From positions 1,802,277 through 1,866,276 of the forward strand of contig NZ_LR881183.1 of assembly GCF_904067545.1 (NCBI RefSeq): 64,000 bases of DNA, in the 5' to 3' direction. This document shows, in pieces, positions 16,518 through 64,000 of this stretch. Source of the DNA: Thermococcus camini (GTDB lineage: Archaea; Methanobacteriota_B; Thermococci; Thermococcales; Thermococcaceae). The notes below the pieces were generated by a model. It searched no databases. It was not told the origin of the DNA and saw nothing but the letters and a program-made list of their open reading frames with translations. The translations under genes and the position numbers were made by a program. Every line of letters starts with the position of its first letter. Within the stretch, counting starts at the first letter, position 1.

Positions 16518-16615
16518 ACTCCAAGGTTGACCTTTCCTGTTAAAACTCTAACTGACCGGTTTCGTGGGTCGGCAGGCTTTTAAGGTTCTCGCCAAAAGCT
16601 GGCGTGGTGATGCTC

Positions 16616-17251
16616 ATGCCGTACCTGCTCATAGAACACCTGGAGGAACTGCGCGATTGGGTTCTGCTCGAGTACAGACACACGAGCGAGTGGTGGGGAG
16701 AAAAGCTGATATTCACCAATGTGGAGCCGCACGAGAGGGAAGAACTCGCGAAGCTGGGGAGCGTTTTGAGCCAGAGCGTTACCGAGTTCCCCTTCGACAG
16801 GTCGAAGCTCATAATCCTCGACCCCTTCGCTGAGGAGGAGCTTAAACCTGAGGACATTGAGGAGGACAGCATAATCGTCGTCGGGGGAATCCTCGGCGAC
16901 TTCGAGTTCACGGGCAAGACCAAGAAGTTCATCACGTCCAAAATCGAGGGGGCCAAGGCCAGGCACATCGGGAGCGTGCAGTTCTCCATAGACGGCTCGG
17001 CGATAGTTGCGAAGCTGATAACGGAGGGGAAGAGACTTGAGGAGATAGAGTACGAGCTGAACCCGACGATAAAGCTCGACGAGTTCAGCGAGATAACGCT
17101 CCACTACGCGGTGCCAAAGCTGAACGGAAAGCTCCTCCTCACGCCGGGGCTCATAGAACTCCAGAAGAGGGAGCTTGGATACACCGAGGCTGACGATGAG
17201 ATAAGCGACGAGGAGCTAATAGAGTTTTTTGAGGGGAAGGGGGAGCTTTAA
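16616..17251 (+). CDS. SFM1-like SPOUT methyltransferase
   Basis: The 211-residue protein matches the predicted SAM-dependent RNA/protein methyltransferase family whose yeast member Sfm1 methylates an arginine of ribosomal protein uS3. Family phrases seen are YLLIEHLEELRDWVLLEY at the N-terminus, IFTNV, ILDPFAEEELKPED, and the knot-forming VVGGILGDFEF with HIGSVQFSIDGSAIVAKLI. The GGTGAT at 16606-16611 sits before ATG 16616, which I prefer to the upstream GTG/GTG/ATG in frame. The substrate in archaea is not established. Confidence 0.78.
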   Translation: MPYLLIEHLEELRDWVLLEYRHTSEWWGEKLIFTNVEPHEREELAKLGSVLSQSVTEFPFDRSKLIILDPFAEEELKPEDIEEDSIIVVGGILGDFEFTGKTKKFITSKIEGAKARHIGSVQFSIDGSAIVAKLITEGKRLEEIEYELNPTIKLDEFSEITLHYAVPKLNGKLLLTPGLIELQKRELGYTEADDEISDEELIEFFEGKGEL

Positions 17252-17379: not shown

Positions 17380-17417
17380 TGTGTTAAAACACAACCTTAA
17401 AACGTAAGACTTATAAG
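17380..17417 (+). promoter_or_regulatory. Promoter of secreted-protein copy 1, with inverted repeat
   Basis: TATA box ACTTATAAG at 17409-17417 is preceded by an inverted repeat TGTGTT-AA-AACACA at 17380-17393. The TATA block and the following CCCGACGCGTCATTACTAA recur before the other two small secreted genes. The inverted repeat is unique to this copy. The remainder of 17252-17379 shows no gene. Confidence 0.6.
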
Positions 17418-17437
17418 ACCCGACGCGTCATTACTAA

Positions 17438-17454
17438 CACCTCCCATGGAGGTG
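17438..17454 (+). promoter_or_regulatory. Leader hairpin pairing an anti-SD-like segment with the ribosome site
   Basis: CACCTCC-CAT-GGAGGTG is a 7-bp perfect stem with a 3-nt loop. Its right arm is the ribosome site of the small secreted gene and its left arm equals the anti-Shine-Dalgarno core of archaeal 16S rRNA. The TATA box predicts transcription starting at or just before the stem. Confidence 0.5.
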
Positions 17455-17459
17455 CTACC

Positions 17460-17828
17460 ATGAAGCGTAGGATACTGCTCGGAGTCCTCCTCCTTGGAGG
17501 ACTGTTGATCGGCCTCGTGAATGCCGCAGGTAGTATTTCAACCCAAAGCTGTTGGACGCCATGGGACCACAACAGCGACGTTAGAGAATGGAGTCAGGAC
17601 GAGTGGGTCTGGGCCAGCATTCACGGACAAGTACTCGTATGCAACGGCCAGTTCAAGATGGTTCTCACAGACACAGTTTACGGAACAGCCACAGCAAAAG
17701 GAATGGAATGGTACCACAGGGAAATTAAAGCCACACCCAGTGTTGCATACGCAAAGGTGACTTACAAAAGATATTCCGAGAGCCAAAGCAAGACCGCCAT
17801 TGCGTCCATTCCGAACTATTGGAGGTAA
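17460..17828 (+). CDS. Small secreted two-cysteine protein, copy 1
   Basis: The 122-residue precursor has a clear signal peptide (MKRRILLGVLLLGGLLIG, cleavage after VNA at about residue 22) and a mature part of about 100 residues opening AGSISTQSCWTPWDHNSDV. Two cysteines (about 31 and 60) are kept in all three copies and could form a disulfide. The middle VLTDTVYGTATAKG is invariant, while the last 40 residues diverge and end IPNYWR. I do not recognise the family. Arrangement and size recall secreted bacteriocins of the lactococcin-972 kind only loosely. Its TAA lies inside the GGAGGTAAC ribosome site of the next gene. Confidence 0.85.
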   Translation: MKRRILLGVLLLGGLLIGLVNAAGSISTQSCWTPWDHNSDVREWSQDEWVWASIHGQVLVCNGQFKMVLTDTVYGTATAKGMEWYHREIKATPSVAYAKVTYKRYSESQSKTAIASIPNYWR

Positions 17829-17832
17829 CAAA

Positions 17833-18855
17833 ATGAGACGCAGATTTTTCTTTGTTATTATCTTCCTTATTTTTTTAGAATCTCCTCAAGTGGTGCTATC
17901 ACTAAACATTGTCCAAAATGGTACTTATGTTAAATATGCTCTACTGGCACCAACAGGCAGAGAAAAAAATGAGATCAATATATTCGAGGTTTATCTCCCA
18001 TGGCTACCTAAGGACGCGCGCGAGGCCATTAATGAACACCTGGAAGAGACAAACAGGGAAAAGCTTATATCTTTATTCGTGAGGGGGGATGTTTTCATAA
18101 CGCTTAATATATCAGACGTGAGGAACAACATTGCGCTTGTAAACATTACGCTTCAGCTTAACGACGTATGGGTAAATAACAGGCATCATATCCCTCAGTT
18201 AAACATTTCCCGGACTCTTGTTCTCGATACAATGACAATGGAATACAAGACAAAGAACAATATAACACTGGGAAGACCTATCTTCTTCATTGACCCTATA
18301 CACCCTCCCAAGAAGGGCTCTCTGATGGTCAATATGAAGCCCGTCAAGGAACTGGGAGCAATAACAAAGAACCTCGTCGTTGGGAACATCTCGTATCAGT
18401 GGGGAGAAAACTCCAGGCTCCACACGTATTATCGTGTGTTCCAACCACCGTATATCTATGTTTCAAGCTCTGTGGTACCCTTCAACTGGGAGATAGACGG
18501 AGGATATTACTCGGCTACCATAGGAACGTACTACGTTTATGATTTTGATACAGGCGTGCTAATAACGGCATATTCCGACGTAAGCCCAGAGCTACTAGCC
18601 CTAGGGGTCATAAATGGGGACAGCTACGATTACCTAGCCGCAGAAAATATGGACAAACTGGAAAAAAAGGGTACAAAGTACGAGCTATGGAATCCTGGAT
18701 TTAATCTTTACGATACTAACATCGAGTTCCCTGAAACTTCCTCCACAGCCGCCCCAAGAACGGGAATGAGGTACTTCTTCCTGTTATCCTTAACGTGCCT
18801 CATTATAACCTACTCAATGACGCAGGCCAAGTTACTATTGCAAAACAACAGATAA
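17833..18855 (+). CDS. Membrane-anchored extracellular protein, paralogue A (A/C subtype)
   Basis: The 340-residue protein has a signal peptide (MRRRFFFVIIFLIFL, ending near VVLS), a large extracellular domain rich in N-glycosylation sequons, and one C-terminal membrane segment (YFFLLSLTCLIITYS) with a basic tail. Shared landmarks with its three paralogues are NGTYVKYAL, LPKDA, VRGDVFITL, the LHTYYRVFQPPYIYV block, a VYDFDTGVLIT strand and GFNLYDTNIEFPETSS. No enzyme motif is visible. Start ATG 17833 follows GGAGGTAAC. Location next to a secreted small protein suggests a partner, receptor or self-protection protein; this is inference. Confidence 0.82.
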   Translation: MRRRFFFVIIFLIFLESPQVVLSLNIVQNGTYVKYALLAPTGREKNEINIFEVYLPWLPKDAREAINEHLEETNREKLISLFVRGDVFITLNISDVRNNIALVNITLQLNDVWVNNRHHIPQLNISRTLVLDTMTMEYKTKNNITLGRPIFFIDPIHPPKKGSLMVNMKPVKELGAITKNLVVGNISYQWGENSRLHTYYRVFQPPYIYVSSSVVPFNWEIDGGYYSATIGTYYVYDFDTGVLITAYSDVSPELLALGVINGDSYDYLAAENMDKLEKKGTKYELWNPGFNLYDTNIEFPETSSTAAPRTGMRYFFLLSLTCLIITYSMTQAKLLLQNNR

Positions 18856-18900
18856 ATTCAAATAAGCCACAGGATATTAAAAACTCTCCAACACAGTAAG

Positions 18901-18944
18901 ACTTATAAGGCCCGACGCGTCATTACTAATGCCTCCCATGGAGG
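18901..18944 (+). promoter_or_regulatory. Promoter and leader hairpin of secreted-protein copy 2
   Basis: TATA box ACTTATAAG (18901-18909) is followed by the conserved GCGTCATTACTAATG block and the stem CCTCC-CAT-GGAGG (18932-18944), whose right arm is the ribosome site of the gene at 18952. The segment ATTAAAAACTCTCCAACACAGT just upstream is shared with copy 3. Confidence 0.55.
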
Positions 18945-18951
18945 TGCTACC

Positions 18952-19314
18952 ATGAAGCGTAGGATACTGCTCGGAGTCCTCCTCGTTGGAGGACTGTTGA
19001 TCGGCCTCGTGAATGCGGCAGGTAGCGTTTCCACCCAAAGCTGTTGGACGCCATGGGACCACAACAGCGACGTTAGGCAGTGGAGCGACAATGAATGGGT
19101 CTGGGCCGGCATTCACGGACAAGTACTCGTGTGTGATGGAAAGTTCCAGAAGGTCCTCACAGACACAGTTTACGGAACAGCCACAGCAAAAGGTGTGGAA
19201 GTAATTAAAAGGGAAGTCATTAGAGACCCGCGCATTTCCTATGCTAGAGTGAAGTACATAAGGAACGGAATGATCGACGAAGCATTTGCAGACATTCCTA
19301 ATTACTTTGGATAA
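18952..19314 (+). CDS. Small secreted two-cysteine protein, copy 2
   Basis: The 120-residue precursor is nearly identical to copies 1 and 3 through the signal peptide and the first 60 or so mature residues (AGSVSTQSCWTPWDHNSDV, then VLVCDGKFQKVLTDTVYG). It diverges after TATAKG and ends ADIPNYFG. The 108 bases 19005-19112 are identical to 21557-21664 in copy 3. It carries its own promoter, so it is likely expressed as the head of a transcript continuing into paralogues B and C. Confidence 0.84.
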   Translation: MKRRILLGVLLVGGLLIGLVNAAGSVSTQSCWTPWDHNSDVRQWSDNEWVWAGIHGQVLVCDGKFQKVLTDTVYGTATAKGVEVIKREVIRDPRISYARVKYIRNGMIDEAFADIPNYFG

Positions 19315-19341
19315 ATGCAGCAAAAGCTGGAGGGAGAAGAC

Positions 19342-20385
19342 TTGAAAAAATACCTCACCTTTTTTATTGTTTTTTTCTTGGTGTCTACACCATTCACCCA
19401 GTTGTCACAGGCTTCAAGGGTGCCATACTGGTTCAAGGAGGGAACCTACATCAAATACGCTGTAAAAATGCCGGAACACCCAGGTAAGCACGAAGTGAAC
19501 GTATTTCCAGTATGGCCACCACTTCTCCCGAAAGATGCGTACGCTAAAATAAAAGAGGCATACGAGGGAACTTCAGGCTTGGTTAAAATGGATAACAACT
19601 CCATAGTGCCCCTGTTAGTGCGGGGCGACTCGTACCTGACTTTTGAGATTCTTGACGTCACCAATAAAACCGCCCTCGTGAAGGTTACCCTGGAGATGAA
19701 CAACGTGAGCGCGAGCCCCGAAGAAATCCTTCCCCGTCTGATTCTGTCAAAAATCCTTATCCTTAATCTGAGCGACACGACTTACTATGAAGAAGACGGC
19801 ACCCCAATCGGATCACCCATGTTCTTCATAGACCTTACCAATCCTCCAATGAAAGGGGAACACCTTCTCTCACAGGCATTTATGAAAAAATACCACCTCC
19901 GGGGAGATAATATTGTTGTAACAAATGTTTCATTCGCCTGGATGGAGGACAAAACCCTTCACACTCATTACAGGGACTTTCTGCCGCCTTACATCTACAT
20001 CGAGGGAAGAAGCAAGTACCTAGTCTACGACCTGAATACCGGAAGCAGAGTGGAAACCATAACCCAAATGATCTACGATATCGACACGGGAATTTTAATA
20101 ACGACGCTGTTCTGCGATGCCGCTCCGGAACTCGTCAGCTTGGGGGTTATCGACTCGTCTCCCCTGGATCGAGTGAACTCACGGAAGCTGGAGAGGCTCA
20201 TAGAGAAAGGTAAGGACGACAGGGAGTGGTGGGCACAGGGCTTCAACCTCTATGATACTAACGTTAAATTCCCGGAAACATCGTCATCAAAAACTCCGAG
20301 CACGGGAATGAGGCATTTCTTCGCGACTTCACTTGCACTCCTAGTCCTCACCGCTTTCCTTAACTGGAGGTGGAGAAGGAGATGA
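19342..20385 (+). CDS. Membrane-anchored extracellular protein, paralogue B (B/D subtype)
   Basis: The 347-residue protein has the same plan as paralogue A: signal peptide, extracellular beta-rich domain, and a C-terminal membrane segment with the tail RWRRR. It is closest to paralogue D, sharing EEDGTPIGSPMFF, YDIDTGILITT, PELVSLG and LDRVNSRKL. An in-frame ATG at 19315 abuts the preceding stop, but GGAGGGAG at 19329-19336 and the signal-peptide reading LKKYLTFFIVFFLV point to TTG 19342 as the start. The next gene overlaps it by ATGA. Function unknown. Confidence 0.8.
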   Translation: MKKYLTFFIVFFLVSTPFTQLSQASRVPYWFKEGTYIKYAVKMPEHPGKHEVNVFPVWPPLLPKDAYAKIKEAYEGTSGLVKMDNNSIVPLLVRGDSYLTFEILDVTNKTALVKVTLEMNNVSASPEEILPRLILSKILILNLSDTTYYEEDGTPIGSPMFFIDLTNPPMKGEHLLSQAFMKKYHLRGDNIVVTNVSFAWMEDKTLHTHYRDFLPPYIYIEGRSKYLVYDLNTGSRVETITQMIYDIDTGILITTLFCDAAPELVSLGVIDSSPLDRVNSRKLERLIEKGKDDREWWAQGFNLYDTNVKFPETSSSKTPSTGMRHFFATSLALLVLTAFLNWRWRRR

Positions 20386-21407
20386 GGAAAACCGCCGCCA
20401 TTGTCCTGACACTCTTGACACTCTCAATGACAATGCCTCCAGCTTACTCTCTCCCTTATTGGTTCAAGGAGGGAACCTACGTTAAATACGCCCTTCTGAT
20501 GCCGGAAAATCACGACGAGCGTGAATGGAATGCGTTTCAAGTATGGCCGGAACTTCTCCCGAAAGACGCTTATGAGAGCATGTCCGCTGTGGAGGAAATA
20601 GATACTGACTCCTTCATAACCCTTGTGGTGAAAGGGGACGTCTTCTTAACCTTTGAAATCGTTGATATGTCCAACGATACTGCCTCAATCAGAGTTACTT
20701 TAGAGATGAACAAAGTGCTGGTCAACTTCCACAAACCCCTCAACAGGCTAGTCCTTTCAAGGACGATACACCTCAACCTGACTGACATGATGTACCACCA
20801 AAACGGCATGGCTTTGGGAACGCCTGCTTTCTTTGTGGATCCTGCCAAATTGCCGGACAAAGGAACTCTGCTCGTTCGTTTGAGTACCCTTAGGAGGTTC
20901 AACTTCACGACCTCTGACTTAAAAGTGAACAACCTATCGTTCACCTGGATGGACAAAAAGATTCTCCACACGCACTATGGGGATTTTAATCCGCCATACA
21001 TCCTTGTCGGGAGCAACGAAGTGCCTCTGATATGGTCACGAGGGGAAGGTGGGATATGGGTCTCAGTTGCTTCAAGTAGGGTTTATGATTCAGATACGGG
21101 AGTTATGCTTACGACTCCACTGATGGGGCTTTCTCCAGAGTTGCTTACAATTGGAATTATAAACGGAGACAGTTACGACTACCTTGCCTGCAGAAGAATG
21201 AAGGAACTTTTCAATGAGGGCAAAGCGGATAGGGAGTGGTGGGAACCCGGCTTCAATCTTTACGATACTAACATCGAGTTCCCTGAAACTTCCTCCACAG
21301 CCGCCCCAAGAACGGGAATGAGGTACTTCTTCCTGTTATCCTTAACATTCCTCATCATAACTCAAACAATACAGAGAGCCAAGTTACTATTGCAAAACAA
21401 CAGATAA
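20382..21407 (+). CDS. Membrane-anchored extracellular protein, paralogue C (A/C subtype)
   Basis: The 341-residue protein shares the N-terminal block YWFKEGTYVKYALLMPE with paralogue B and the C-terminal third with A. The 92 bases 21255-21346 are identical to 18703-18794. It has a signal peptide ending PPAYS, an extracellular domain with THYGDFNPPYILV and VYDSDTGVMLTT, and a C-terminal membrane segment followed by the same tail AKLLLQNNR as A. The ATG overlaps the stop of B and has GGAGGTGGAGAAGGAG upstream, so translation is coupled. Confidence 0.82.
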   Translation: MRKTAAIVLTLLTLSMTMPPAYSLPYWFKEGTYVKYALLMPENHDEREWNAFQVWPELLPKDAYESMSAVEEIDTDSFITLVVKGDVFLTFEIVDMSNDTASIRVTLEMNKVLVNFHKPLNRLVLSRTIHLNLTDMMYHQNGMALGTPAFFVDPAKLPDKGTLLVRLSTLRRFNFTTSDLKVNNLSFTWMDKKILHTHYGDFNPPYILVGSNEVPLIWSRGEGGIWVSVASSRVYDSDTGVMLTTPLMGLSPELLTIGIINGDSYDYLACRRMKELFNEGKADREWWEPGFNLYDTNIEFPETSSTAAPRTGMRYFFLLSLTFLIITQTIQRAKLLLQNNR

Positions 21408-21452
21408 ATTTGAATGCTCTATGAAATATTAAAAACTCTCCAACACAGTAAG

Positions 21453-21497
21453 ACTTATAAGGCCCGATGCGTCATTACTAATGCTCCCTATGGAGGT
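21453..21497 (+). promoter_or_regulatory. Promoter and leader of secreted-protein copy 3
   Basis: TATA box ACTTATAAG (21453-21461) and the conserved GCGTCATTACTAATG block precede CTCC-CTAT-GGAG (21484-21495), a shortened version of the leader hairpin of copies 1 and 2. The ribosome site is GGAGGTGCT before ATG 21504. Confidence 0.5.
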
Positions 21498-21503
21498 GCT
21501 ACC

Positions 21504-21866
21504 ATGAAGCGTAGGATACTGCTCGGAGTTCTCCTGGTTGGAGGACTGCTTGTAAGCCTCGTGAATGCGGCAGGTAGCGTTTCCACCCAAAGCTGTTGGA
21601 CGCCATGGGACCACAACAGCGACGTTAGGCAGTGGAGCGACAATGAATGGGTCTGGGCCGGCATACACGGGCAAGTCCTCGTATGCAACGGCCAGTTCAA
21701 GATGGTTCTCACCGACACAGTTTACGGAACAGCCACAGCAAAGGGAGTCGAAGTGATAAGCAAGGGGCTTAAGATAGACTCAAAAAGATCGTATGCCTAC
21801 GTTACATACACCCGATATGGCTCGATAGAAACTGCCTTTGCAGACATTCCTAATTATTTCGGATGA
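21504..21866 (+). CDS. Small secreted two-cysteine protein, copy 3
   Basis: The 120-residue precursor has the same signal peptide and two-cysteine core as copies 1 and 2. The first half is identical in DNA to copy 2, while the stretch around CNGQFKMVLTDTVYG follows copy 1, so it is a mosaic. The C-terminal 40 residues (from AKGVEVISKG) are its own, ending ADIPNYFG. The frame extends 30 codons upstream, but the promoter, ribosome site and signal peptide place the start at ATG 21504. Confidence 0.84.
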   Translation: MKRRILLGVLLVGGLLVSLVNAAGSVSTQSCWTPWDHNSDVRQWSDNEWVWAGIHGQVLVCNGQFKMVLTDTVYGTATAKGVEVISKGLKIDSKRSYAYVTYTRYGSIETAFADIPNYFG

Positions 21867-21883
21867 TTTCGGAGGGAAACAGC

Positions 21884-22909
21884 GTGAGAAGAGCAGTTTT
21901 GTTTTTTCTAATTCTTTTTCTGGTTGTTTCACCCTTCTCAGGAGCACAAAGCATCGAAAAGCCAAAGACGCCCTCGTGGTTCAGAGATGGAACGTATTTG
22001 GTGTACACAATGATGATGCCAACGAATCCAAAAAAAGGAGAGGTAAATGTTATTGAGGTATGGCCTAGGTTACTTCCCCCTCAGGGTATCCCCAAGAGCA
22101 TTATCGAGGATTTGGACAATAGTTCAACCGTGACCCTCCTGGTTTCTGGGGACATGTATCTAACCATTAAGATCGTGAATACGACCAGCGATACTGCGTA
22201 TGTTCAGATCGAGCTTGAGTTAAATAATGTGAGTGCTAAACAGGGAATTATCATTCCCAGATTAAGCTTGAAGAAAACACTCCTTCTTAACCTAACAGAG
22301 ATGCTTTACTATGAAGAAGATGGTACACCAATTGGCAGCCCCATGTTTTTTGTGAATCCACTCCATTTGCCAAAAGAGGATGACTATATCGTTGTTCCAG
22401 CCTTTCTAAAGAAGTATGGCCTCATCTCGGACAGGATAACGATAAAGAACGTCTCATATACATGGATGGAGAACAGGGTACTCCACACACACTACAAAGA
22501 TTTCATGCCACCGTACCTCTACGTTGAGGGCAGGGGACTGTATCTTGTGTACAATCGACAAACAGGAGGAAGCTTTGATATTGTAACTCAGTTAGTTTAT
22601 GACATAGATACCGGCATTTTAATAACGACCGGACTCTGTGATATCACTCCTGAGCTTGTTAGTCTGGGCATCGTTAAAGTAATTGCCCTTGACAGGGTGA
22701 ACTCCAGGAAATTGTACAAGCTCATCGATGAGGGAAAGGCAGATAAGGAGTGGTATGCTCAGGGGTTCAACCTCTACGACACCAACGTCAAACTCCCAGA
22801 CTATGGAAGCGGACGTTCACCTTCGACGCCGGTTAAGTACTTCTTCGTCCTCTCGCTCGTTGTTCTCGCTATGACAGCTTTGTGGACGGAAAGGAGGTGG
22901 AAGCGGTGA
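21884..22909 (+). CDS. Membrane-anchored extracellular protein, paralogue D (B/D subtype)
   Basis: The 341-residue protein is built like paralogues A-C: signal peptide (VRRAVLFFLILFLVV), extracellular domain with PSWFRDGTYLVYTMMMP, EEDGTPIGSPMFF and LHTHYKDFMPPYLYV, then a membrane segment (YFFVLSLVVLAMTAL) and basic tail. The start is probably GTG 21884, seven bases after GGAGGG; ATG 21863 overlaps the stop of copy 3 but has no ribosome site. The stop overlaps the GTG start of the PEGA protein, linking this cassette to the export genes. Confidence 0.8.
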   Translation: MRRAVLFFLILFLVVSPFSGAQSIEKPKTPSWFRDGTYLVYTMMMPTNPKKGEVNVIEVWPRLLPPQGIPKSIIEDLDNSSTVTLLVSGDMYLTIKIVNTTSDTAYVQIELELNNVSAKQGIIIPRLSLKKTLLLNLTEMLYYEEDGTPIGSPMFFVNPLHLPKEDDYIVVPAFLKKYGLISDRITIKNVSYTWMENRVLHTHYKDFMPPYLYVEGRGLYLVYNRQTGGSFDIVTQLVYDIDTGILITTGLCDITPELVSLGIVKVIALDRVNSRKLYKLIDEGKADKEWYAQGFNLYDTNVKLPDYGSGRSPSTPVKYFFVLSLVVLAMTALWTERRWKR

Positions 22910-24495
22910 GATGGAAGGTCATTTTTCTGGCATTTTTGGTGGCCGGTCTGCTCGTTCCCCCTGCGCATTCGGCAGGAGGGCCCACTGAAAGGCCAGGCTA
23001 TCTGTTCGTTGAGGCACCCAGTGGCCTGGTGGCTGAGATAGTAGGGGTAGGCTCTTACGCTACTCCCGTAGGTCTGGCGCTCCCTCCAGGAAACTACACC
23101 GTCAGGATAACCGGAAACGTCACGGTGGTTGCCCAGGTTTCGGTGGTAGCTGAAACCGCCACCATCATTCGTGTGAACCCCGAGGAGATTGAAGATGCCG
23201 TTTCAGGGGAGGGAATCGTGTCGATAAGGGCAATCTTCAACGAGAGCGCCAACTACAGCCGGGAGAAGCTCAACCCGCCTTTTGACCCCTTTGCATTTCC
23301 CGGGGGATGCGGAAGCAGCTTCGGGTATCTCGACATATCGAACCCCTACCCAATGGGCCTCGCAGTACGGGGAAAGGACGGGGTGTACATAACCCTCAAT
23401 GGAACCTTCATGCACATCGGAGACGATGACGGGAAACCCTGTATTTTCCATGTTGAAGTGTACCCCGGGGGAAGTGAGCATCAGGAAAGCGTTAGAAACG
23501 CCACCTACATCGTCCCCTGGGCGCGGCTGGAGATAACCTCGGTTCCGGAAGGCCTAACGTTCTACATCACCGGGGGCCACAATAGGTACATCTTCTACAC
23601 CCCTCTGGGCCTCTACGTTCCCGCAATCCCCCACGATGTCCACAACGCCACCGCCATCGGTTACTACGGAACGATACGGATTCCGGTAATTCACAGGCTC
23701 GACACCCACGTCGTTGGGATAGCGGAGAACCACTATCTCATCGAAAGCGTCGTCAGGGTTGTTCCCAATGAGACTCACCACATCAACGTGGACATGGAAA
23801 AGGTGAAGTCCGCGCTGACGGTGGAAAGGAAGGTTGTGGGAGCAATTCCCCTCGAGGTAGATTCAGAGCCGGGCAACGCTTCCATAGTGGTTACCGATGG
23901 GGTTCTAAGGGCCTTCGCCGTCACTCCCGCCACGCTGTTCCTTCCACCCGGGAACTACACGGTCATAGCCTCGAAGGACAACCTCTCGGCTAAAGAATCC
24001 GTGGTTCTGGTCGAGAGCTCAAGCGTCTTCCTGAAGCTCTCCCCGGCCAGCGCAACCCTCACGGTCGTGACCTATCCAGGCAACGCGACGGTGCTCTTGA
24101 ACAGTAAGGAGGTCGTGGCAAGAAACCTCACCCTCAGCCCCGGGCGCTACAATCTCACCGTGAAGGCTCCCGGATACCTCACTAAGAGCATGGAGGTAAT
24201 CCTGGCCCCGAACGAGTCAAAGACCGTTGAGATAAGCCTGGAGAAAAAGCCAGCAGATGAGGATCCGAAAATCGTCATCTCGCCGCCTTCGAGTGGACCG
24301 GACGACATAAAATCTGGGGAGATGACAGAGACCGACGAGAACGACGTTCTCGGTAAAAACCAAACCCACTCGTTGCCCTCCACCGATAACGTTCCAAGCC
24401 GTGAAGAGAAGGAAAACCATCCCCTGTGGATCAAGCTGGCTACCCTGGCCGGAGTTGTTGCGGTCGTCTATCTGATCCTGAAAGTGAGGAGGTGA
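22906..24495 (+). CDS. PEGA-repeat surface protein with C-terminal membrane anchor
   Basis: The 529-residue secreted protein has a signal peptide ending AHSAGG, a first PEGA-like unit (LPPGNYTVRITGN near residue 60), a central extracellular domain of about 200 residues containing GCGSSFGYLDIS, and further PEGA-like repeats at about residues 315-445 (PPGNYTVIASKDN, SPGRYNLTVKAPGY). An acidic linker and a single membrane helix (LATLAGVVAVVYLILKV) follow. PEGA domains are beta-sandwich cell-surface modules. GTG 22906 with GGAGGTGG upstream is the start. It overlaps paralogue D and precedes the ABC permease by 4 nt. Confidence 0.86.
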   Translation: MRWKVIFLAFLVAGLLVPPAHSAGGPTERPGYLFVEAPSGLVAEIVGVGSYATPVGLALPPGNYTVRITGNVTVVAQVSVVAETATIIRVNPEEIEDAVSGEGIVSIRAIFNESANYSREKLNPPFDPFAFPGGCGSSFGYLDISNPYPMGLAVRGKDGVYITLNGTFMHIGDDDGKPCIFHVEVYPGGSEHQESVRNATYIVPWARLEITSVPEGLTFYITGGHNRYIFYTPLGLYVPAIPHDVHNATAIGYYGTIRIPVIHRLDTHVVGIAENHYLIESVVRVVPNETHHINVDMEKVKSALTVERKVVGAIPLEVDSEPGNASIVVTDGVLRAFAVTPATLFLPPGNYTVIASKDNLSAKESVVLVESSSVFLKLSPASATLTVVTYPGNATVLLNSKEVVARNLTLSPGRYNLTVKAPGYLTKSMEVILAPNESKTVEISLEKKPADEDPKIVISPPSSGPDDIKSGEMTETDENDVLGKNQTHSLPSTDNVPSREEKENHPLWIKLATLAGVVAVVYLILKVRR

Positions 24496-24499
24496 GGCA

Positions 24500-25270
24500 A
24501 TGCGGGCACAGATAAAGTGGGAGCTTGAAGACCCATACAACCTCATCGTCTTCATCTTTGGCTTCATCATGCTCGGCATCACCTTCTTCTCCGGCCTGAC
24601 GAGAAACGATACTGTGTTCATGATAGCCGGGCCTGACAGCGTAATAGTCTCTGAATCGGCCAAGAACATTGGCCTCACCCTGCCAAGGCTGGGGATCGAG
24701 GAGTACACGATATTCGCCCTCACCGGAGCGTTGCTGGTCTCGCTGATGCTAAGATATGACAGGGACACCAGGGTTGCCAAGAGCGTCTACAGCCTGCCCG
24801 TAAGGAACCACTCGGTGGTACTCTCTAAGGCACTCTCCGCCATGATGCTGCTCTTCCTCGCCTCAATCCTGCCGGCGTTCCTTGCCTTCATCTACATCCA
24901 CGGGGACGTTCCCGGGCTGATGAGTAGGGCACTCTTTGGAGAGGGCTTTTTAGCGGGCTATCTCCTCTACTGGGCGATGATGGTGCTCTACGTGGTATCC
25001 CTCTCAGCCCTGGTGGCGATGCTCTCACCAAACACCTTCGCTTCCCTCCTCGGGAGCATCACACTCCTCTACGTCCCCCTCGTGCTCAAACTGAGGAGCC
25101 TTCCACCCTCCGCTATTGATGACGCGTTCTTCAAGGCATACACCACCCAGTTTTATCCTCTCGATCGGATAGCGGCGTTCATTGACAGTTCGTTCTATAT
25201 AGGACTTCTCCTTCCCGTGGTAATGCTTGGCGTAGCCCTCATAGTCAGCGAGTGGAGGGACGTCTCATGA
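24500..25270 (+). CDS. ABC-2 type exporter permease
   Basis: The 256-residue integral membrane protein has six hydrophobic segments (starting near residues 12, 72, 108, 146, 175 and 232) and the LMLRYDRDTRVAKSVYSLPV loop typical of ABC-2 permeases. With the ATPase at 25701 and the small two-membrane-segment protein between them, it would form an exporter. GAGGTGAGGCA precedes the ATG. Its cargo is unknown; co-location with three small secreted proteins suggests a role in their release or in immunity. Confidence 0.85.
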   Translation: MRAQIKWELEDPYNLIVFIFGFIMLGITFFSGLTRNDTVFMIAGPDSVIVSESAKNIGLTLPRLGIEEYTIFALTGALLVSLMLRYDRDTRVAKSVYSLPVRNHSVVLSKALSAMMLLFLASILPAFLAFIYIHGDVPGLMSRALFGEGFLAGYLLYWAMMVLYVVSLSALVAMLSPNTFASLLGSITLLYVPLVLKLRSLPPSAIDDAFFKAYTTQFYPLDRIAAFIDSSFYIGLLLPVVMLGVALIVSEWRDVS

Positions 25271-25704
25271 GGCTCCTAAAGGCGGTACTGCTGTCGATGG
25301 TCATCATGACGATCCTGGTGTTCCCGATAGAGAAGAACGCGCTGACCCAGCCGATTTCCGAGGTCGTTCTCATGGGGCAGGGAATCATCGTGCCCTCCTC
25401 TGGAATGGTCATGCTGAGCTCCAGCGCCGACGAGGGAACCGAATACGCCGTCAGGGTCTTCGATCCGGAAAGCGGAAGGGCAGTCCTTGAGAGGAACGTG
25501 AGCGGAAGCTTCAGGGGCAGGGTTATGCTGGAGCATTCCGGCCCCTACTACTTCTCGGTTCAGACCATGACACCGGTGACGATGGCGGTCAGGGTCATAA
25601 ACAGGTATCCCTCGGTAACGGTGCTCAACATCAGGTACGGCCTGGGTGGAGTAAGCGCCCTGCTTCTGGCGGCAATCCTGCTGGTGGAGGGGAGGAAGAA
25701 ATGA
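25267..25704 (+). CDS. Small accessory membrane protein of the exporter operon
   Basis: The 145-residue protein has a membrane helix at each end (residues about 4-22 and 123-140) and a beta-rich extracellular middle (VVLMGQGIIVPSSGMVMLSS, SGPYYFSVQTMTPVTMAVRV), with a fold reminiscent of GOLD/emp24-like domains. That comparison is by eye. ATG 25267 overlaps the permease stop, and its own stop overlaps the ATPase start, so all three are coupled. I do not recognise the family. Confidence 0.78.
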   Translation: MRLLKAVLLSMVIMTILVFPIEKNALTQPISEVVLMGQGIIVPSSGMVMLSSSADEGTEYAVRVFDPESGRAVLERNVSGSFRGRVMLEHSGPYYFSVQTMTPVTMAVRVINRYPSVTVLNIRYGLGGVSALLLAAILLVEGRKK

Positions 25705-26363
25705 TAACCGCGAGAAACCTCACGAAGAGGTTTGGAAAGCTCGTGGCTCTGGATTCGGTGAATCTTGAAATAGACGGAGGACTAACGCTTATACTCGGTC
25801 CCAACGGCGGAGGAAAGAGCACCTTCCTGAACCTCTGCGCCGGCCTCTACAGGCCAAGCAAAGGGGAAATCAAGGTTCTCGGGGAAAACCCATGGAGCAA
25901 CGACGGGCTGAGGAAAAGGATAGGCGTCTCCTTCGACCCGCCGGCTCTTCCGAGGCACAGGACGGCCAGGGAATGGCTCGGTTACATAGCGGAGGTCAAG
26001 AGATTGGATAAAGACGAAGTCCTCAAGGCGGCGGAGCTTTTCTCGGCTATGAATTACCTCGACAGAAAGATGGGAGAGTACTCTGCTGGAATGCTCAAGA
26101 GGATCAGCCTGACCCAGGCATTCCTCGGAAAGCCGGAGCTGGTGCTCCTTGACGAACCCCTGGCAAACCTTGACCTGGAGGGAATAATGGAAGTGGCAAA
26201 GGTAATCGGAGAGCAGGCCCAAAAGGGAACCAACATGGTAGTGGTTTCCCACATCTGGCGCCCGCTGGTTGAGTTCGCTGACAGAATCGTCGTGATAGCC
26301 GCAGGAAAGGTTGTGATGACGGGAACCCCAGAAGAGGTGGTTCCGAAAATTGAGGAGATTTAG
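25701..26363 (+). CDS. ABC exporter ATPase
   Basis: The 220-residue ATPase would drive the ABC-2 permease two genes upstream. Walker A is GPNGGGKST at about residues 34-42, Walker B LVLLDEPLANLD and the switch histidine VVSHIW. The ABC signature reads YSAGMLKRI instead of LSGGQ-like, a deviation seen in some ABC-2 exporters. The ATGA start overlaps the preceding gene. It ends the island; the next gene is convergent and overlaps by 4 nt. Confidence 0.9.
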   Translation: MITARNLTKRFGKLVALDSVNLEIDGGLTLILGPNGGGKSTFLNLCAGLYRPSKGEIKVLGENPWSNDGLRKRIGVSFDPPALPRHRTAREWLGYIAEVKRLDKDEVLKAAELFSAMNYLDRKMGEYSAGMLKRISLTQAFLGKPELVLLDEPLANLDLEGIMEVAKVIGEQAQKGTNMVVVSHIWRPLVEFADRIVVIAAGKVVMTGTPEEVVPKIEEI

Positions 26364-26656
26364 CCTTTCCCACCCCTCATCTTCTTTTCTATCTCTTCCC
26401 AAACCCTCTTCCTGTCCTCTTTGTCCACCACCAGAAAGACGTCCTGAACGCTCCCGTCGCTCTTGGCAACGAGCTTAAGGCCAGTCTTGGTTTCCCTTGA
26501 GACCTTTATCTCGAAGCCCCTTGAATCGCTCGCGTATATCCTTCCGGGGATTACCTTTTTGACCCCAGGTATCGCGGCTATCATCTCCAAGGGCTTCTCA
26601 AGGCCCTTCAGGAAGTGGTGCTCTCTCTTGACGCCTTTGCGGAAGTGCTTCGGCAT
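26360..26656 (-). CDS. DUF2103 family protein
   Basis: The 98-residue protein carries the family pattern HHFLKGLEKPLEMIAAIPGV and VIPGRIYAS, with a conserved histidine pair that has led to its description as a predicted metal-binding protein. Basic residues are concentrated at the N- and C-termini (KKMRGGKG). Function is not established. It is unlinked to the exporter genes, which run the other way. Confidence 0.75.
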   Translation of the reverse strand: MPKHFRKGVKREHHFLKGLEKPLEMIAAIPGVKKVIPGRIYASDSRGFEIKVSRETKTGLKLVAKSDGSVQDVFLVVDKEDRKRVWEEIEKKMRGGKG

Positions 26657-59194: not shown

Positions 59195-61177
59195 TTAAGC
59201 ACCCCGCATAAACTGACGAGAGAACAACGCAAGCAACTGGGTCCATATGTATATTCCAAGGCCCATCTCGATGGCATACGTCCAAATGGCGAATCTAGTT
59301 GAAAATACGACATATGGATCGGAAGTCACTAACGCTGAAAGGCTAATATACATGTACCCTACAATACTATGTACTGATTCACTCGAGAGAAGTCCAAAAA
59401 GATCATATATTCCATATAAAATGGCTCCTATCAGCCATATGCCAAGCCAAACGCCAAAAGTGCGTTTCCAATTCGTCCCATACTCAGAAAATATATCTAT
59501 AAAGATTTTTTCCCCCAGATATGCCAATTCACCCATTATTTTTTTCCACATAGACCCCGAAGTCCTAGACTTAGCCCTATTGTCCTCCCGCCTAGATCTC
59601 ATTTCAAGAACAAAATATTCATCAGCTTTCTCAGGATTGCCATTTGAATCATAATTACGTCTAGCCAATCTATACATGCTTGCACGTATCCACGCAGGTG
59701 TATTGTGAGGTAAGCCAATCCTTTCGTTTCCAGCATTATCTACTGTCCCAAATAATATATCCTTCCCAACGTAAATTTTTGATACCTTAACCTCCCTATT
59801 AAGACAGTCCTCTTTTGGACAAATATTGTAGTTTACAATCTTAAAGTCATTCCCGATATTTACCCTTTCTACCCGAAATCCTTCAAAAATTGAGCTGTAA
59901 TTATTAACAGAACCCATTAACTGCAGGTTATTACCCACATCAACGTTGAACATGACAAGTTTCCCAATATCTATGTCCTTTATATTTATGTCCACTTGAA
60001 CCTTGGTGGTATTCCCTGAATATAAATCCCCTTGTATTTTAAGTTGCCCTATATGTGGGACACTCTCTGTATTTTCCAAACCGAAGAGGTGCACGTTGTA
60101 CACATGAAGGTCAGTTAGGATTACTGCATCGATATCCTTTTTAGGCTGAAATACTAAATCCCCCGCACATTGAAGAGAATTGATCTCTAGTTTTGAACCC
60201 ATCTCGAGTTCGGTAATTTTTATTTGTCCATTGCGGACTTTCAACTCAATGTACGCACTGGTTAAATCCAAAATTATACTACTACTTTCGAGTTGGTTTT
60301 CTCTCAGATTCACGCCAGTAACATCCTTAAGATAGATCTTCTCAATGGTTTTTGACTTAACATTGAACCGCCCAATCCTGCCGTTCTCTATAACAAGTGT
60401 TCTTATCCCGTTTTTAGATATGTACAATTCATCCACTTCCACATTAGATAGAATTAATTTGTCTATCACGAGATCGTTACTTTCTAAGTAGAACTTTCTG
60501 ATATGAACCCCACTAATAATAACACTCTTTGCATCTACCTCCTCAATGGTCAGGCTTCCAAGCACTGGAACGGTGCTTTGTTTAGACGTTCCCTCGGCTT
60601 TCAAGACAATAGCCGTGATGTCTTTAATTTCTTTGAGCCGTATTTCCGTTGACCTGGCCCTATTATCGAGTATATTCTCTATACCCAGTAGTTCAATCCT
60701 TCGTTCAGTTCCACTTCCGGTTACGCGTTCCAAGGTAAAGGCGTGCACATTAAAGTTGTCCATCCTGATGTAATCCACTTCCACGTTTTCCAAATGAAAT
60801 TTCTCAATACTCGTGTATTCAGTATTAAGAACCAAGGGGATGTTTATATCATACAGAATCACGCTATCCAGAGTGTTAATATTGGCTATGCCAATTTGGA
60901 ATTTAGCCCTTTCTGTAGAACAATAATGCAGTTTACTTACAAAAAATTCCTTCAGGGGAATACGTGACAGGCTGACAACTGAATCTCTGTCTTCCTCAAC
61001 AGTAGCTTTAATTGATATTCCCTGGATCCCAGGGTGTGAATCAGACAATGTAAGTTTAAATGAATCTTCAAGTTCTCCAGAGATTTTAAGTTCTCCATTT
61101 TCTACCCTGACTTCTGATATATCTTCAAAATCCCCCCGCAACAATTGCGTAACCTTTTTATCCGTGATTTCGATCAT
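59195..61177 (-). CDS. Beta-solenoid protein with C-terminal ion-channel-like membrane domain
   Basis: The 660-residue protein is not recognised as a whole. Residues about 1-480 are a series of short strands with a recurring pattern of alternating hydrophobic residues (VDYIRMDNFNVHAFTLERV, VDELYISKNGIRTLVIENG, IGRFNVKSKTIEKIYLKDV), as in a right-handed solenoid. A basic segment precedes two membrane helices (about 560-580 and 625-650) flanking SLSALVTSDPY, a place where two-segment ion channels carry the selectivity filter. The region is much richer in A+T than its surroundings. It is divergent from a PLD-helicase gene. Confidence 0.75.
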   Translation of the reverse strand: MIEITDKKVTQLLRGDFEDISEVRVENGELKISGELEDSFKLTLSDSHPGIQGISIKATVEEDRDSVVSLSRIPLKEFFVSKLHYCSTERAKFQIGIANINTLDSVILYDINIPLVLNTEYTSIEKFHLENVEVDYIRMDNFNVHAFTLERVTGSGTERRIELLGIENILDNRARSTEIRLKEIKDITAIVLKAEGTSKQSTVPVLGSLTIEEVDAKSVIISGVHIRKFYLESNDLVIDKLILSNVEVDELYISKNGIRTLVIENGRIGRFNVKSKTIEKIYLKDVTGVNLRENQLESSSIILDLTSAYIELKVRNGQIKITELEMGSKLEINSLQCAGDLVFQPKKDIDAVILTDLHVYNVHLFGLENTESVPHIGQLKIQGDLYSGNTTKVQVDINIKDIDIGKLVMFNVDVGNNLQLMGSVNNYSSIFEGFRVERVNIGNDFKIVNYNICPKEDCLNREVKVSKIYVGKDILFGTVDNAGNERIGLPHNTPAWIRASMYRLARRNYDSNGNPEKADEYFVLEMRSRREDNRAKSRTSGSMWKKIMGELAYLGEKIFIDIFSEYGTNWKRTFGVWLGIWLIGAILYGIYDLFGLLSSESVHSIVGYMYISLSALVTSDPYVVFSTRFAIWTYAIEMGLGIYIWTQLLALFSRQFMRGA

Positions 61178-61271
61178 TACAACACCCTCCAATGATCATG
61201 GCCTAACAATACATTCAACCAACTAACCAACTAAAAGGATATAAATATTTAGTGGCAGTAAAGTATACTTA
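61178..61271. promoter_or_regulatory. Divergent promoter region of the AT-rich island
   Basis: On the plus strand ATAAATATTT (61241-61250) lies about 27 nt before ATG 61272, so the helicase mRNA may be leaderless. On the minus strand GGAGGGTG precedes ATG 61177. Four tandem ACCAACTA-like pentamers (CAACCAACTAACCAACTA) at about 61216-61233 may be a regulator site. Confidence 0.5.
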
Positions 61272-64000
61272 ATGGTGATGAAAATTACTGGCGAAATAAA
61301 GGTTATAGACAACACAAAAAAACCATTATCCGAGTACATCAAGAAAGAACTGCTGAAAAGCAGAAATGCTAAATTCGCGGTTGGTTACTTCTACCTTAGT
61401 GGATGGAATCTTATTAATGATGGAGTCCCCTCAGCAGCCCCAAAAGATTTTTTGAAGTTGGTAATTGGCAATTCACCTGATATAGATGCCGGCATCTCAA
61501 AGGATGAATTTAAGTTAAGATTCTTAGAAGAGATTTCCAAACACTCAAATTCAGATACTGTTGAGAACTTATGCAATTTGATAAGAAATGAAATAGTAAA
61601 GATTCGAGCTTACACTCAGGGAAGACTCCATTCCAAATTATATCTCTTCACTGGGGACAATAGACAGGTTGCTATAGTTGGTTCGTCCAACCTAACAAGC
61701 GCCGGGCTGTTTAAGAACAAAGAACTAAACATAATACTCCAAAATGTGGACACAATAAAAGAACTCGACAAATGGTTTGAAGAACTCTGGGAAGAAAGCG
61801 AGGATATCCAAGAAGAAATCCTAGAACTGATAGAAGCAGGAAAAAATATTGGTATAAACTTTGGAAAGTTTGTGACACCTAAACAATTATTCAAAATCCT
61901 TGTGTGGAAATGGTTTGACGGCATGGTAGAGCCAGTGCAAAAAAAAGGAGTCTTAGCCGAATTCCAGTTGATAGGTGTAATAAACGCCATCAGAATTATC
62001 TCTGAATTTAATGGAGTCATAATAGCCGATTCCGTCGGTCTGGGAAAAAGCTTTATTGGGGCAACTATCATTGAGGAATACCTCAGGGGTAAACTTCCTA
62101 ACTGGGACCCAAATCGCTTTGGAATTAAAAAAGAACGAAAAGCTTTGTTGATATTACCCCCCTCCCTGATACCACAATGGGAGTATCTCTTAACTAGTGG
62201 CGAATACTTTTTCTCCAGGAGTGAAGGATTTTATCTAAAGCCCATATCCTCCGGTTCGGCCAGATTTCGAAAGTACACTATATTCCATAAGACAAGGGGA
62301 AAAGTGGGGGAAATAGCCTTTCTATCAATGGACAAATTCAGCGCATATTCCCAAGAGGATATTATAAATATGGGGCTCAATTACGACTACGACCTTATCT
62401 TGATAGATGAAGCCCACCGGTTGAGAAACCGCGCCACCAAACGCTGGAAGAATGCCCGGGTGCTAAGATTCAAGGACAAATCCATTTCATATCAAAACAA
62501 GTTTATACTGCTAACAGCCACACCATTAAACAATACTATCTGGGATATCTATAACCTAATAAAAGTATTTTCTGACGATTTCTTCTCAGCATTTAAATCA
62601 AAGGGAATTGATATTACACAGTTATTCATGGAATTCCGCGAAGCCAAGAAAAAATGGAAAGAAGACCCCCTTAAATATGAGGCCCAATTACAGAGAATCG
62701 CCCAAAAGATAAAAGAAGAGGTCCTTGACAACACAATGATTCTCAGGACAAGGAAATACATTCTGCAGACGTTTGGAAAAGATGGAAAGATAAAAATTGG
62801 TGAGAGAGAGCTAATTTTCCAGGATCCCAAACCAGATAGAGTGACGTACAAAGAGATAACTGGTGGGCAATATCAGAGATATTGGGAATTCATTAAGACA
62901 CTCCCGGAATACTTTGAGAAACTAGAATTCGAATATGTTAATCTGTATACCAGCGGATATATAATCCTCGGCAGCAGCCCAGAGGAAACAACCCCCGCAC
63001 AAGCGGAGGAGGAATTCGTCAAAGTATCCCTTTCATCAATACTAAAGCTCTTGCTGGCAAAAAGAATAGAGAGCAGTATTTTCGCTTTTGAGAGAACCCT
63101 AAACAAAATGTATGGCAAGAACCACAGTATTTATACTATCCTCAAAAGCTACATTCCCAAATTGAAGGTCGCCAAAACTGATCGTGCTAAGTTCGATAAA
63201 TATGTCATGAACCTTGGTGAAGACCTCCTTCGTGTACTTCAGAAGGAAGATGTTGAGTCAAAATTACTAACGGAGCTCGGAGAAGAACCCGAGACATACA
63301 ATACGAAACTCGTTATACTGTCAAAATTCGTTGAAAAAGGTGCTCAGATTCAGCTTCCGGAGTTCAAAACGACAGAGGAACTCCTACACCATGTTCATAG
63401 GAAGCATCTAGAGCACGCCCTTATCAGAGGCATGACCTCGGTCTCTTTCAAAATAAAATCAGACATAACTGTAATGAAAGCCATTCTCTCAAAGCTTGAA
63501 GAAGTAAAAGTAAGAAAGAATGGCTCAAATGAACCTGAAGTGATAGGATATCTAACAGAAGAATCAGAGAAAATCCCCATATACAATTATTACGATCCAA
63601 AACTTGAACGCCTCAAAGAAATAATTAAGACTGAATTTCTACGAAAAAAATGTATCATCTTCACCCAGTACAAAGATACAGCAAAGTATCTTTACGCTTA
63701 CTTAAGTTATTGGGCACCCAACCAAGCGGCTTTACAGTATTTGGTACGAGGAGATAACCAGTTAAAAATTGGCTTGGTCACAGGAGAACTGGATGTCGAA
63801 CAGAAGGAGCACATAATAAAACGTTTCGCTCCAATCGCAAACAACAGCAGAGATGTAGCCGAAAGATATGGAGAGATTGAGATTCTAATCTCCACAGACT
63901 CCCTCAGTGAAGGTGTGAACCTACAGGACGCCGATGCGGTTATCAACTATGACCTTCCATGGAACCCGATGATAATCGTCCAGAGGGTGGGAAGGGTCAG
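61272..64000 (+). CDS. PLD-domain SNF2-family helicase (3' end beyond window)
   Basis: At least 909 residues are encoded with no stop before the window ends. The N-terminus has a phospholipase-D-like domain with HSKLYLF and VGSSNLTSAGL (residues about 117-144). A SNF2/RapA-type helicase follows: ADSVGLGKSFIGA (Walker A, about 251-263), LILIDEAHR (DEAH, about 374-382), LLTATPLNNT, then the second RecA half with IIFTQYKDTAKYL, ISTDSLSEGVNLQDADAVINYDLPW and QRVGRV at the edge. Such helicases are common in antiviral islands. Start ATG 61272 is probably leaderless; ATG 61278 is possible. Confidence 0.9.
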   Translation, partial: MVMKITGEIKVIDNTKKPLSEYIKKELLKSRNAKFAVGYFYLSGWNLINDGVPSAAPKDFLKLVIGNSPDIDAGISKDEFKLRFLEEISKHSNSDTVENLCNLIRNEIVKIRAYTQGRLHSKLYLFTGDNRQVAIVGSSNLTSAGLFKNKELNIILQNVDTIKELDKWFEELWEESEDIQEEILELIEAGKNIGINFGKFVTPKQLFKILVWKWFDGMVEPVQKKGVLAEFQLIGVINAIRIISEFNGVIIADSVGLGKSFIGATIIEEYLRGKLPNWDPNRFGIKKERKALLILPPSLIPQWEYLLTSGEYFFSRSEGFYLKPISSGSARFRKYTIFHKTRGKVGEIAFLSMDKFSAYSQEDIINMGLNYDYDLILIDEAHRLRNRATKRWKNARVLRFKDKSISYQNKFILLTATPLNNTIWDIYNLIKVFSDDFFSAFKSKGIDITQLFMEFREAKKKWKEDPLKYEAQLQRIAQKIKEEVLDNTMILRTRKYILQTFGKDGKIKIGERELIFQDPKPDRVTYKEITGGQYQRYWEFIKTLPEYFEKLEFEYVNLYTSGYIILGSSPEETTPAQAEEEFVKVSLSSILKLLLAKRIESSIFAFERTLNKMYGKNHSIYTILKSYIPKLKVAKTDRAKFDKYVMNLGEDLLRVLQKEDVESKLLTELGEEPETYNTKLVILSKFVEKGAQIQLPEFKTTEELLHHVHRKHLEHALIRGMTSVSFKIKSDITVMKAILSKLEEVKVRKNGSNEPEVIGYLTEESEKIPIYNYYDPKLERLKEIIKTEFLRKKCIIFTQYKDTAKYLYAYLSYWAPNQAALQYLVRGDNQLKIGLVTGELDVEQKEHIIKRFAPIANNSRDVAERYGEIEILISTDSLSEGVNLQDADAVINYDLPWNPMIIVQRVGRV

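What the first reader, a model, noticed from the sequence alone, without database searches (positions are those of the whole stretch)
17380..26363. Possible new secreted-effector system: triplicated two-cysteine protein, four surface paralogues, PEGA protein and ABC exporter
All genes run in one direction and many overlap. Three small exported proteins (copies 1-3) share a constant signal peptide and core with two cysteines, but each has its own last 40 residues. Each sits beside membrane-anchored extracellular proteins of one family (A-D), and the series ends in a PEGA surface protein plus an ABC-2 exporter whose ATPase has a YSAGM signature. A constant front with a variable back, paired with multiplied anchored partners, is what one expects of an antagonistic toxin/immunity or kin-recognition set. 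I did not recognise the small protein as any known archaeocin. A resemblance to lactococcin-972 loci is only in layout.
Basis: partly seen in the sequence, partly recalled or inferred. Interest (0 to 1): 0.88.

Follow-up and report, generated by a model that had tools for sequence, protein, structure and literature searches.

The report
Thermococcus exchangeable toxin/immunity-like gene cassettes
A heat-loving archaeon carries a set of small secreted proteins, each with an interchangeable tail that is swapped between strains together with its neighbouring surface protein, which is how weapon-and-antidote gene pairs behave, although no such activity has been tested.

Summary
Order: S1-A-S2-B-C-S3-D-PEGA-ABC2-M-ATPase. 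S, A and M match no Pfam or NCBIfam model at threshold. The operon is conserved across Thermococcaceae: S in 26 of 94 genomes, always beside A and the ABC genes when intact. A sister system uses an unrelated small protein (S') before homologous A-ABC genes.

Five results favour a polymorphic effector/immunity-like system. (1) S residues ~81-120 and the A front move as one recombining cassette: against a relative, 1 mismatch in 1011 nt inside versus 366 in 4199 outside (Fisher 2e-34). (2) S-tail and A-front distances correlate (rho 0.83) while S-front does not (-0.03). (3) Every surplus A belongs to an allele class found beside an intact S in another species, once reciprocally. (4) S is lost about 12 times while A-ABC stays intact, versus 3 opposite cases. 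(5) The locus is filled or empty at one fixed site.

Most likely S is a secreted bacteriocin-like effector, A its matched immunity receptor, and the ABC-2 unit an immunity pump. Toxicity, binding and target are untested. It is not a sequence member of lactococcin-972, LanI/LanFEG or VARTIG.

The parts
17404..17437 (+). promoter of S1: GTAAGACTTATAAG (BRE/TATA-like) and ATTACTAA (initiator-like)
   Evidence: conserved before S in 13 loci; coordinates read
17460..17828 (+). S1, small secreted two-cysteine protein, 122 aa
17833..18855 (+). A, surface paralogue next to S1, 340 aa
18896..18929 (+). promoter of S2
18952..19314 (+). S2, 120 aa
19315..20385 (+). B, surface paralogue next to S2, 356 aa
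   Evidence: same class as an S-less A of G033
20382..21407 (+). C, surface paralogue without an S of its own, 341 aa
   Evidence: same class as the S-adjacent A of G033, 85% over the front
21448..21481 (+). promoter of S3
21504..21866 (+). S3, 120 aa
21744..22754 (+). exchanged cassette (S3 residues 81-120 plus D residues 1-297): 1 mismatch in 1011 nt against G071, flanks 8.7% diverged
21863..22909 (+). D, surface paralogue next to S3, 348 aa; tail (from about residue 275) evolves with PEGA-ABC
22906..24495 (+). PEGA-domain surface protein with C-terminal membrane anchor, 529 aa
24500..25270 (+). ABC-2-type membrane protein, 256 aa
25267..25704 (+). M, small protein with hydrophobic segments at both ends, 145 aa, conserved partner of the ABC genes
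25701..26363 (+). ABC ATPase of the DrrA/ABC-2 kind, 220 aa
17703..21447 (+). segment absent from the same site in G071; insertion bounded by copies of the S front

Best explanation
This is a polymorphic secreted effector/immunity-like locus of Thermococcales. Each S leaves the cell by its own signal peptide. Its constant front is a disulfide-closed scaffold or delivery part, and residues ~81-112 carry the specificity. The adjacent A protein is an anchored ectodomain whose front recognises the matching S tail and whose tail docks on a constant surface and ABC-2 unit (PEGA, membrane protein, M, ATPase), which removes or neutralises S at the producer's membrane. That would work like LanI with LanFEG, or like the lactococcin-972 immunity transporter. 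Strains exchange [S-tail + A-front] cassettes by homologous recombination in the constant flanks and keep spare A genes against the S of other strains. Shown here: conserved operon, cassette boundaries and exchange, co-inheritance of S tail with A front, surplus A genes of matching class, biased loss of S. Inferred: toxicity, S-A binding, pump function, target, and the disulfide.
For: Same operon in about 35 loci. G000 versus G071: S3-tail plus D-front nearly identical over 1011 nt (1 mismatch), flanks 366/4199, Fisher 2e-34; in G033, G070 and G058 the same block is saturated (pS 0.70-0.89) while PEGA and TM stay at pS 0.31-0.58. Across 13 S-A neighbour pairs S-tail/A-front rho 0.83 (p 0.0001), S-front/A-front -0.03, S-front/S-tail 0.06. 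GC falls from 0.55 to 0.42 at S3 residue 80 and rises to 0.52 in the D tail. All 11 surplus A genes compared, and the 4 A genes behind a broken S, have a 71-92% counterpart beside an intact S in another genome; different classes are mostly 34-57% identical. Reciprocal case G000_C~G033_1 and G033_2~G000_B, both 85%. S or S' lost by internal deletion, frameshift or absence with A-TM-M-N kept in about 12 independent cases, opposite in 3. Fixed site empty in 22 and filled in 11 of 69 genomes. A separate promoter before each S.
Against: No activity data. S-tail and A-front are physically adjacent, so linkage alone gives some correlation. No pN above pS in the S tail, so no sign of ongoing positive selection between the alleles compared. 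S, A and M have no relative of known function. The A model is poor and the S model only moderate, so no binding interface can be proposed. The PEGA protein has no clear place in the mechanism and is absent from the sister system. A-TM-M-N without S is common, so the ABC unit may have a role of its own.
Confidence: 0.6

Rival explanations
1. Kin or self recognition without killing: S and A are a matched secreted/anchored pair that tells like from unlike, for example for aggregation, vesicle or DNA uptake.
For: Same facts as the main reading: matched alleles, surface location, constant scaffold.
Against: Repeated loss of S with A-ABC kept, and stockpiling of A genes with no S of their own, are expected of immunity rather than of a matching tag. 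An ABC pump has no obvious place.
Confidence: 0.15
2. Secreted signal (pheromone-like) with A as receptor and the ABC unit as importer, exporter or relay.
For: Small secreted protein with its own conserved promoter next to a surface receptor-like protein.
Against: No regulator or kinase in the operon; about 100-residue mature proteins are large for a pheromone; several receptors of different class per strain without the matching signal.
Confidence: 0.08
3. Surface antigen variation against viruses: A and PEGA are exposed proteins diversified by recombination, S a secreted companion.
For: Hypervariable exposed A front and constant anchor.
Against: Does not explain why the S tail is exchanged together with the A front, nor the ABC unit; no hit in the viral contig collection or in PADLOC and PHROGs for S, A or PEGA.
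Confidence: 0.07
4. The ABC unit is the dedicated exporter or maturation machine of S, A being a maturation factor or chaperone.
For: Constant co-occurrence of S with A and ABC.
Against: S has a Sec-type signal peptide; A-TM-M-N cassettes survive without S at about a dozen places; different unrelated small proteins precede homologous ABC units.
Confidence: 0.1

Closest known systems
Lactococcin 972 loci (PF09683, with DUF1430-type membrane protein and ABC ATPase)
   Same: Small Sec-exported protein, membrane partner(s) and ABC genes in one operon; AlphaFold predicts an all-beta S with six strands (pLDDT 65). That lactococcin 972 is itself a beta-sandwich is from memory.
   Different: No PF09683 match over cut-off in 94 genomes, none in any of 32 S proteins; two conserved cysteines; no DUF1430-type match; S variable block swapped with A; not among the 50 best structure matches.
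LanI lipoprotein plus LanFEG lantibiotic immunity
   Same: Works-like comparison: strain-specific surface protein beside an ABC-2 pump; ATPase resembles TIGR03740 (1.1e-35) but below its cut-off and behind TIGR01188 DrrA.
   Different: S is not a lantibiotic and no modification enzymes are in the operon; A is anchored by a C-terminal hydrophobic segment rather than a lipobox; one ABC-2 permease plus M instead of LanE and LanG.
CdiA-CT/CdiI and colicin-type polymorphic toxin/immunity cassettes
   Same: Constant delivery part, variable tail linked to a partner gene, exchange as a unit, orphan partner genes.
   Different: Whole S is only about 120 residues and extracellular; partner is an exported anchored protein with an ABC unit; no nuclease or pore domain recognised.
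VARTIG of Thermococcales (PMC8416519)
   Same: Hypervariable, recombining surface module in the same order of archaea, proposed for conflict or recognition.
   Different: VARTIG is built on large Ig-domain proteins (arCOG07710); the paper mentions no PEGA protein or ABC transporter; no Ig or CARDB domain found in S, A or PEGA here.

Membership tests
Lactococcin 972 family | S matches PF09683 or the NCBIfam lactococcin model | tested here: not met
Lactococcin 972 family | partner of the DUF1430 / bacteriocin-associated membrane protein kind | tested here: not met
   no such match for A, TM or M
Lactococcin 972 family | beta-sandwich fold of the secreted protein | tested here: inconclusive
   six-strand all-beta model, pLDDT 65, pTM 0.53; best PDB match 4k15, E 0.013, TM 0.43
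Lactococcin 972 family | kills by binding lipid II | not testable with these tools
   needs assays; no peptidoglycan target is expected in Thermococcus (general knowledge)
LanI/LanFEG immunity | curated lantibiotic-protection ABC model reached | tested here: not met
   TIGR03740 123 bits, cut-off 309.75
Polymorphic toxin/immunity systems | constant front, variable tail exchanged together with an adjacent partner gene | tested here: met
Polymorphic toxin/immunity systems | orphan partner genes matching effectors of other strains | tested here: met
Polymorphic toxin/immunity systems | effector is toxic and partner protects | not testable with these tools
   bench work needed
VARTIG | large protein with several Ig domains (arCOG07710) | tested here: not met
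   no Ig-like domain hit in S, A or PEGA; definition from PMC8416519

The most novel reading that the evidence does not exclude
A so far undescribed archaeal arms-race system: small secreted protein effectors with exchangeable specificity blocks, each paired with a surface immunity receptor that feeds an ABC-2 immunity pump, with at least two unrelated effector families (S, S') feeding homologous immunity machinery across Thermococcales.
Probability: 0.5. Interest if true: 0.88.

Novelty: new variant of a known kind. Interest (0 to 1): 0.78.

Why it matters
Protein weapons of hyperthermophilic archaea are almost unknown. If right, this gives Thermococcales a widespread, strain-specific antagonism system with a clear specificity cassette. 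One genome that carries intact copies of both types (G023, contig 2,088,737 bp) has the size I remember for Thermococcus kodakarensis KOD1, a species with good genetics, so the question would be directly testable. The matched S-tail/A-front alleles also give a ready set of cognate and non-cognate pairs for binding and protection tests.

Tried and rejected
Family searches for S, A, M and S' in Pfam, NCBIfam, PADLOC and PHROGs: nothing at threshold. PDB sequence search: nothing. Lactococcin_972 family search of 94 genomes: nothing over cut-off. Viral contigs and plasmids: no relative. S against S' profile comparison: only the signal peptides match, mature parts do not, so I treat S' as an unrelated protein in the same slot. 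AlphaFold of A with 8 sequences: pLDDT 53, not used further. I kept to the sequences the structure tool states it accepts, so both alignments were shallow (5 and 8 rows). PDB fold match 4k15 (Lmo2686) rests on a moderate model and is only a lead. Positive selection as the source of diversity in the S tail: pN is below pS in every diverged pair compared, so recombination of old alleles fits better. VARTIG considered and rejected. One probably relevant review (mBio 2019, archaeal toxins and recognition systems) is not in the library, so I could not check whether it mentions this operon. The sister system replicates the S'-tail/A-front correlation (rho 0.67) but its S'-front also correlates (0.42), so it is weaker support.

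Full report
WHAT IS THERE. On the + strand of a complete 2.02-Mb Thermococcaceae genome the window holds S1 (17460-17828), A (17833-18855), S2 (18952-19314), B (19315-20385), C (20382-21407), S3 (21504-21866), D (21863-22909), a PEGA-domain surface protein (22906-24495), an ABC-2-like membrane protein (24500-25270), a small protein M with hydrophobic ends (25267-25704) and an ABC ATPase (25701-26363). Only PEGA and the ABC genes have a family match; the membrane protein's is weak.

A CONSERVED OPERON. S occurs in 26 of 94 Thermococcaceae genomes. In about 35 loci the order is S-A(1-4)-PEGA-TM-M-N, S-A-A'-TM-M-N-PEGA or S-A-TM-M-N-PEGA; every intact S is followed by an A gene. Invariant positions in 32 S proteins are both cysteines (C31, C61), D40, W44, W51, A113 and P116. 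In the phylum, A was found only in Thermococcaceae.

A SISTER SYSTEM. A broader A search found A-TM-M-N operons without PEGA. They are preceded by another small secreted protein, S' (about 112 aa, no cysteine), in 23 of 94 genomes. S' also has a nearly constant signal peptide (90% mean identity), a fairly constant front (64%) and a variable back (40%). Mature S and S' show no sequence relationship. A third group has other small secreted ORFs or none upstream. So different small secreted proteins sit in the same slot of one ABC machine.

THE SPECIFICITY CASSETTE. Against G071 at the same chromosomal site, S3 residues 81-120 plus most of D are almost identical (1 mismatch in 1011 nt, 21744-22754), while the rest of the aligned 5.2 kb differs at 366 of 4199 sites (Fisher 2e-34); the lowest count in any 1011-nt window clear of the tract is 38. 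Against G033, G070 and G058 the same block is saturated (pS 0.70-0.89) while PEGA and TM are at pS 0.31-0.58. So the S tail and A front were exchanged together, with borders inside both genes. GC marks the same borders: S3 front 0.554, S3 back 0.423, D front 0.427, D tail 0.515, PEGA 0.563. Over 13 S-A neighbour pairs the S tail tracks the A front (rho 0.83, p 0.0001) while the S front tracks neither. The segment 17703-21447 is an insertion relative to G071, bounded by copies of the S front. A and C share a nearly identical 3' end, promoter and following S front, the likely homology for such events.

SURPLUS A GENES. A genes outnumber or equal S genes in every cassette. Each of 15 A genes with no S or a broken S has a counterpart beside an intact S in another genome at 71-92% front identity, while classes mostly differ at 34-57%. 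One case is reciprocal: window gene C (no S) matches the S-linked A of G033 (85%), and the S-less second A of G033 matches window gene B, which follows S2 (85%). This is what stored immunity against other strains predicts.

LOSS OF S. S or S' is destroyed or missing with A-TM-M-N intact in L040, L041, L046, L047, L061, the orthologous group L072-L076, L079, L098, L105, L106 and L125; in L048 the S front and promoter are gone, A-PEGA-TM-M are intact and the ATPase end was not resolved. That is about 12 events. Several are clean internal deletions or frameshifts. The opposite, S intact with A or TM broken, is seen in L037, L039 and L084. Some of these genomes are drafts, but G000, G014, G028 and G031 are single-contig. 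S is the smaller target, so the bias is not due to length.

FIXED SITE. The genes before (16604-17251) and after (26360-26656, minus strand) are neighbours in most relatives: 22 of 69 genomes have at most 61 bp between them, 11 have 5.1-9.1 kb, the others 0.3-2.9 kb. No integrase was seen. Each S has its own conserved promoter.

MECHANISM. The best-supported reading is a secreted effector (S) with a swappable specificity block, a matched anchored receptor (A front) and a constant ABC-2 unit that protects the producer. Shown: architecture, exchange, co-inheritance, orphan A classes, biased loss of S. Inferred: toxicity, binding, pump direction, target. S carries a Sec-type signal peptide and the ABC unit persists without S, so I do not think the ABC unit is the exporter of S. 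Kin recognition without killing remains the main rival.

STRUCTURE. AlphaFold gives S as six beta strands with moderate confidence (pLDDT 65, pTM 0.53); the best PDB match is 4k15, Listeria Lmo2686, E 0.013, a lead only. The A model is poor.

KNOWN SYSTEMS. It works like bacteriocin loci with ABC immunity and evolves like CDI or colicin cassettes, but it is not a sequence member of lactococcin 972, LanFEG or VARTIG. None of the searches of the held library turned up a description of this operon; one relevant review is not held.

Noticed in passing
L079 (G000:C1:1080000-1094000): The same genome carries a sister operon (S' A A A TM M N) whose S' gene is cut short after residue 51 by a deletion; the rest is intact.
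   Followed up: yes
L072 (G000:C1:1124000-1138000): A third cassette, A-TM-M-N-PEGA without any S, sits downstream of an MFS transporter gene; orthologous in G071, G033, G031 and G044.
   Followed up: partly
L056 (G080:C1:1009001-1029000): In another genus the cassette lies far from the usual site and carries fragments of the usual upstream neighbour gene, a sign of transfer by homologous recombination.
   Followed up: partly
L035 and L078 (G042:C4): A and PEGA genes are multiplied together (S A PEGA A PEGA A PEGA A A PEGA TM M N) behind one S.
   Followed up: no
L115:5767-6186 and L123:4251-4682: Two other small secreted ORFs, unrelated by sequence to S and S', precede A-TM-M-N cassettes; the one in L115 has a pair of cysteines spaced much like those of S.
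   Followed up: partly
window 17440-17456: The leader of S1 contains CCTCC-CAT-GGAGG around the ribosome-binding site, a possible hairpin; only partly kept in relatives.
   Followed up: no
window 59195-64000: GC drops to 0.38-0.41 at 60-64 kb; includes a 665-aa protein (59195-61192, minus strand) with a C-terminal membrane part. Looks like a separate island.
   Followed up: no
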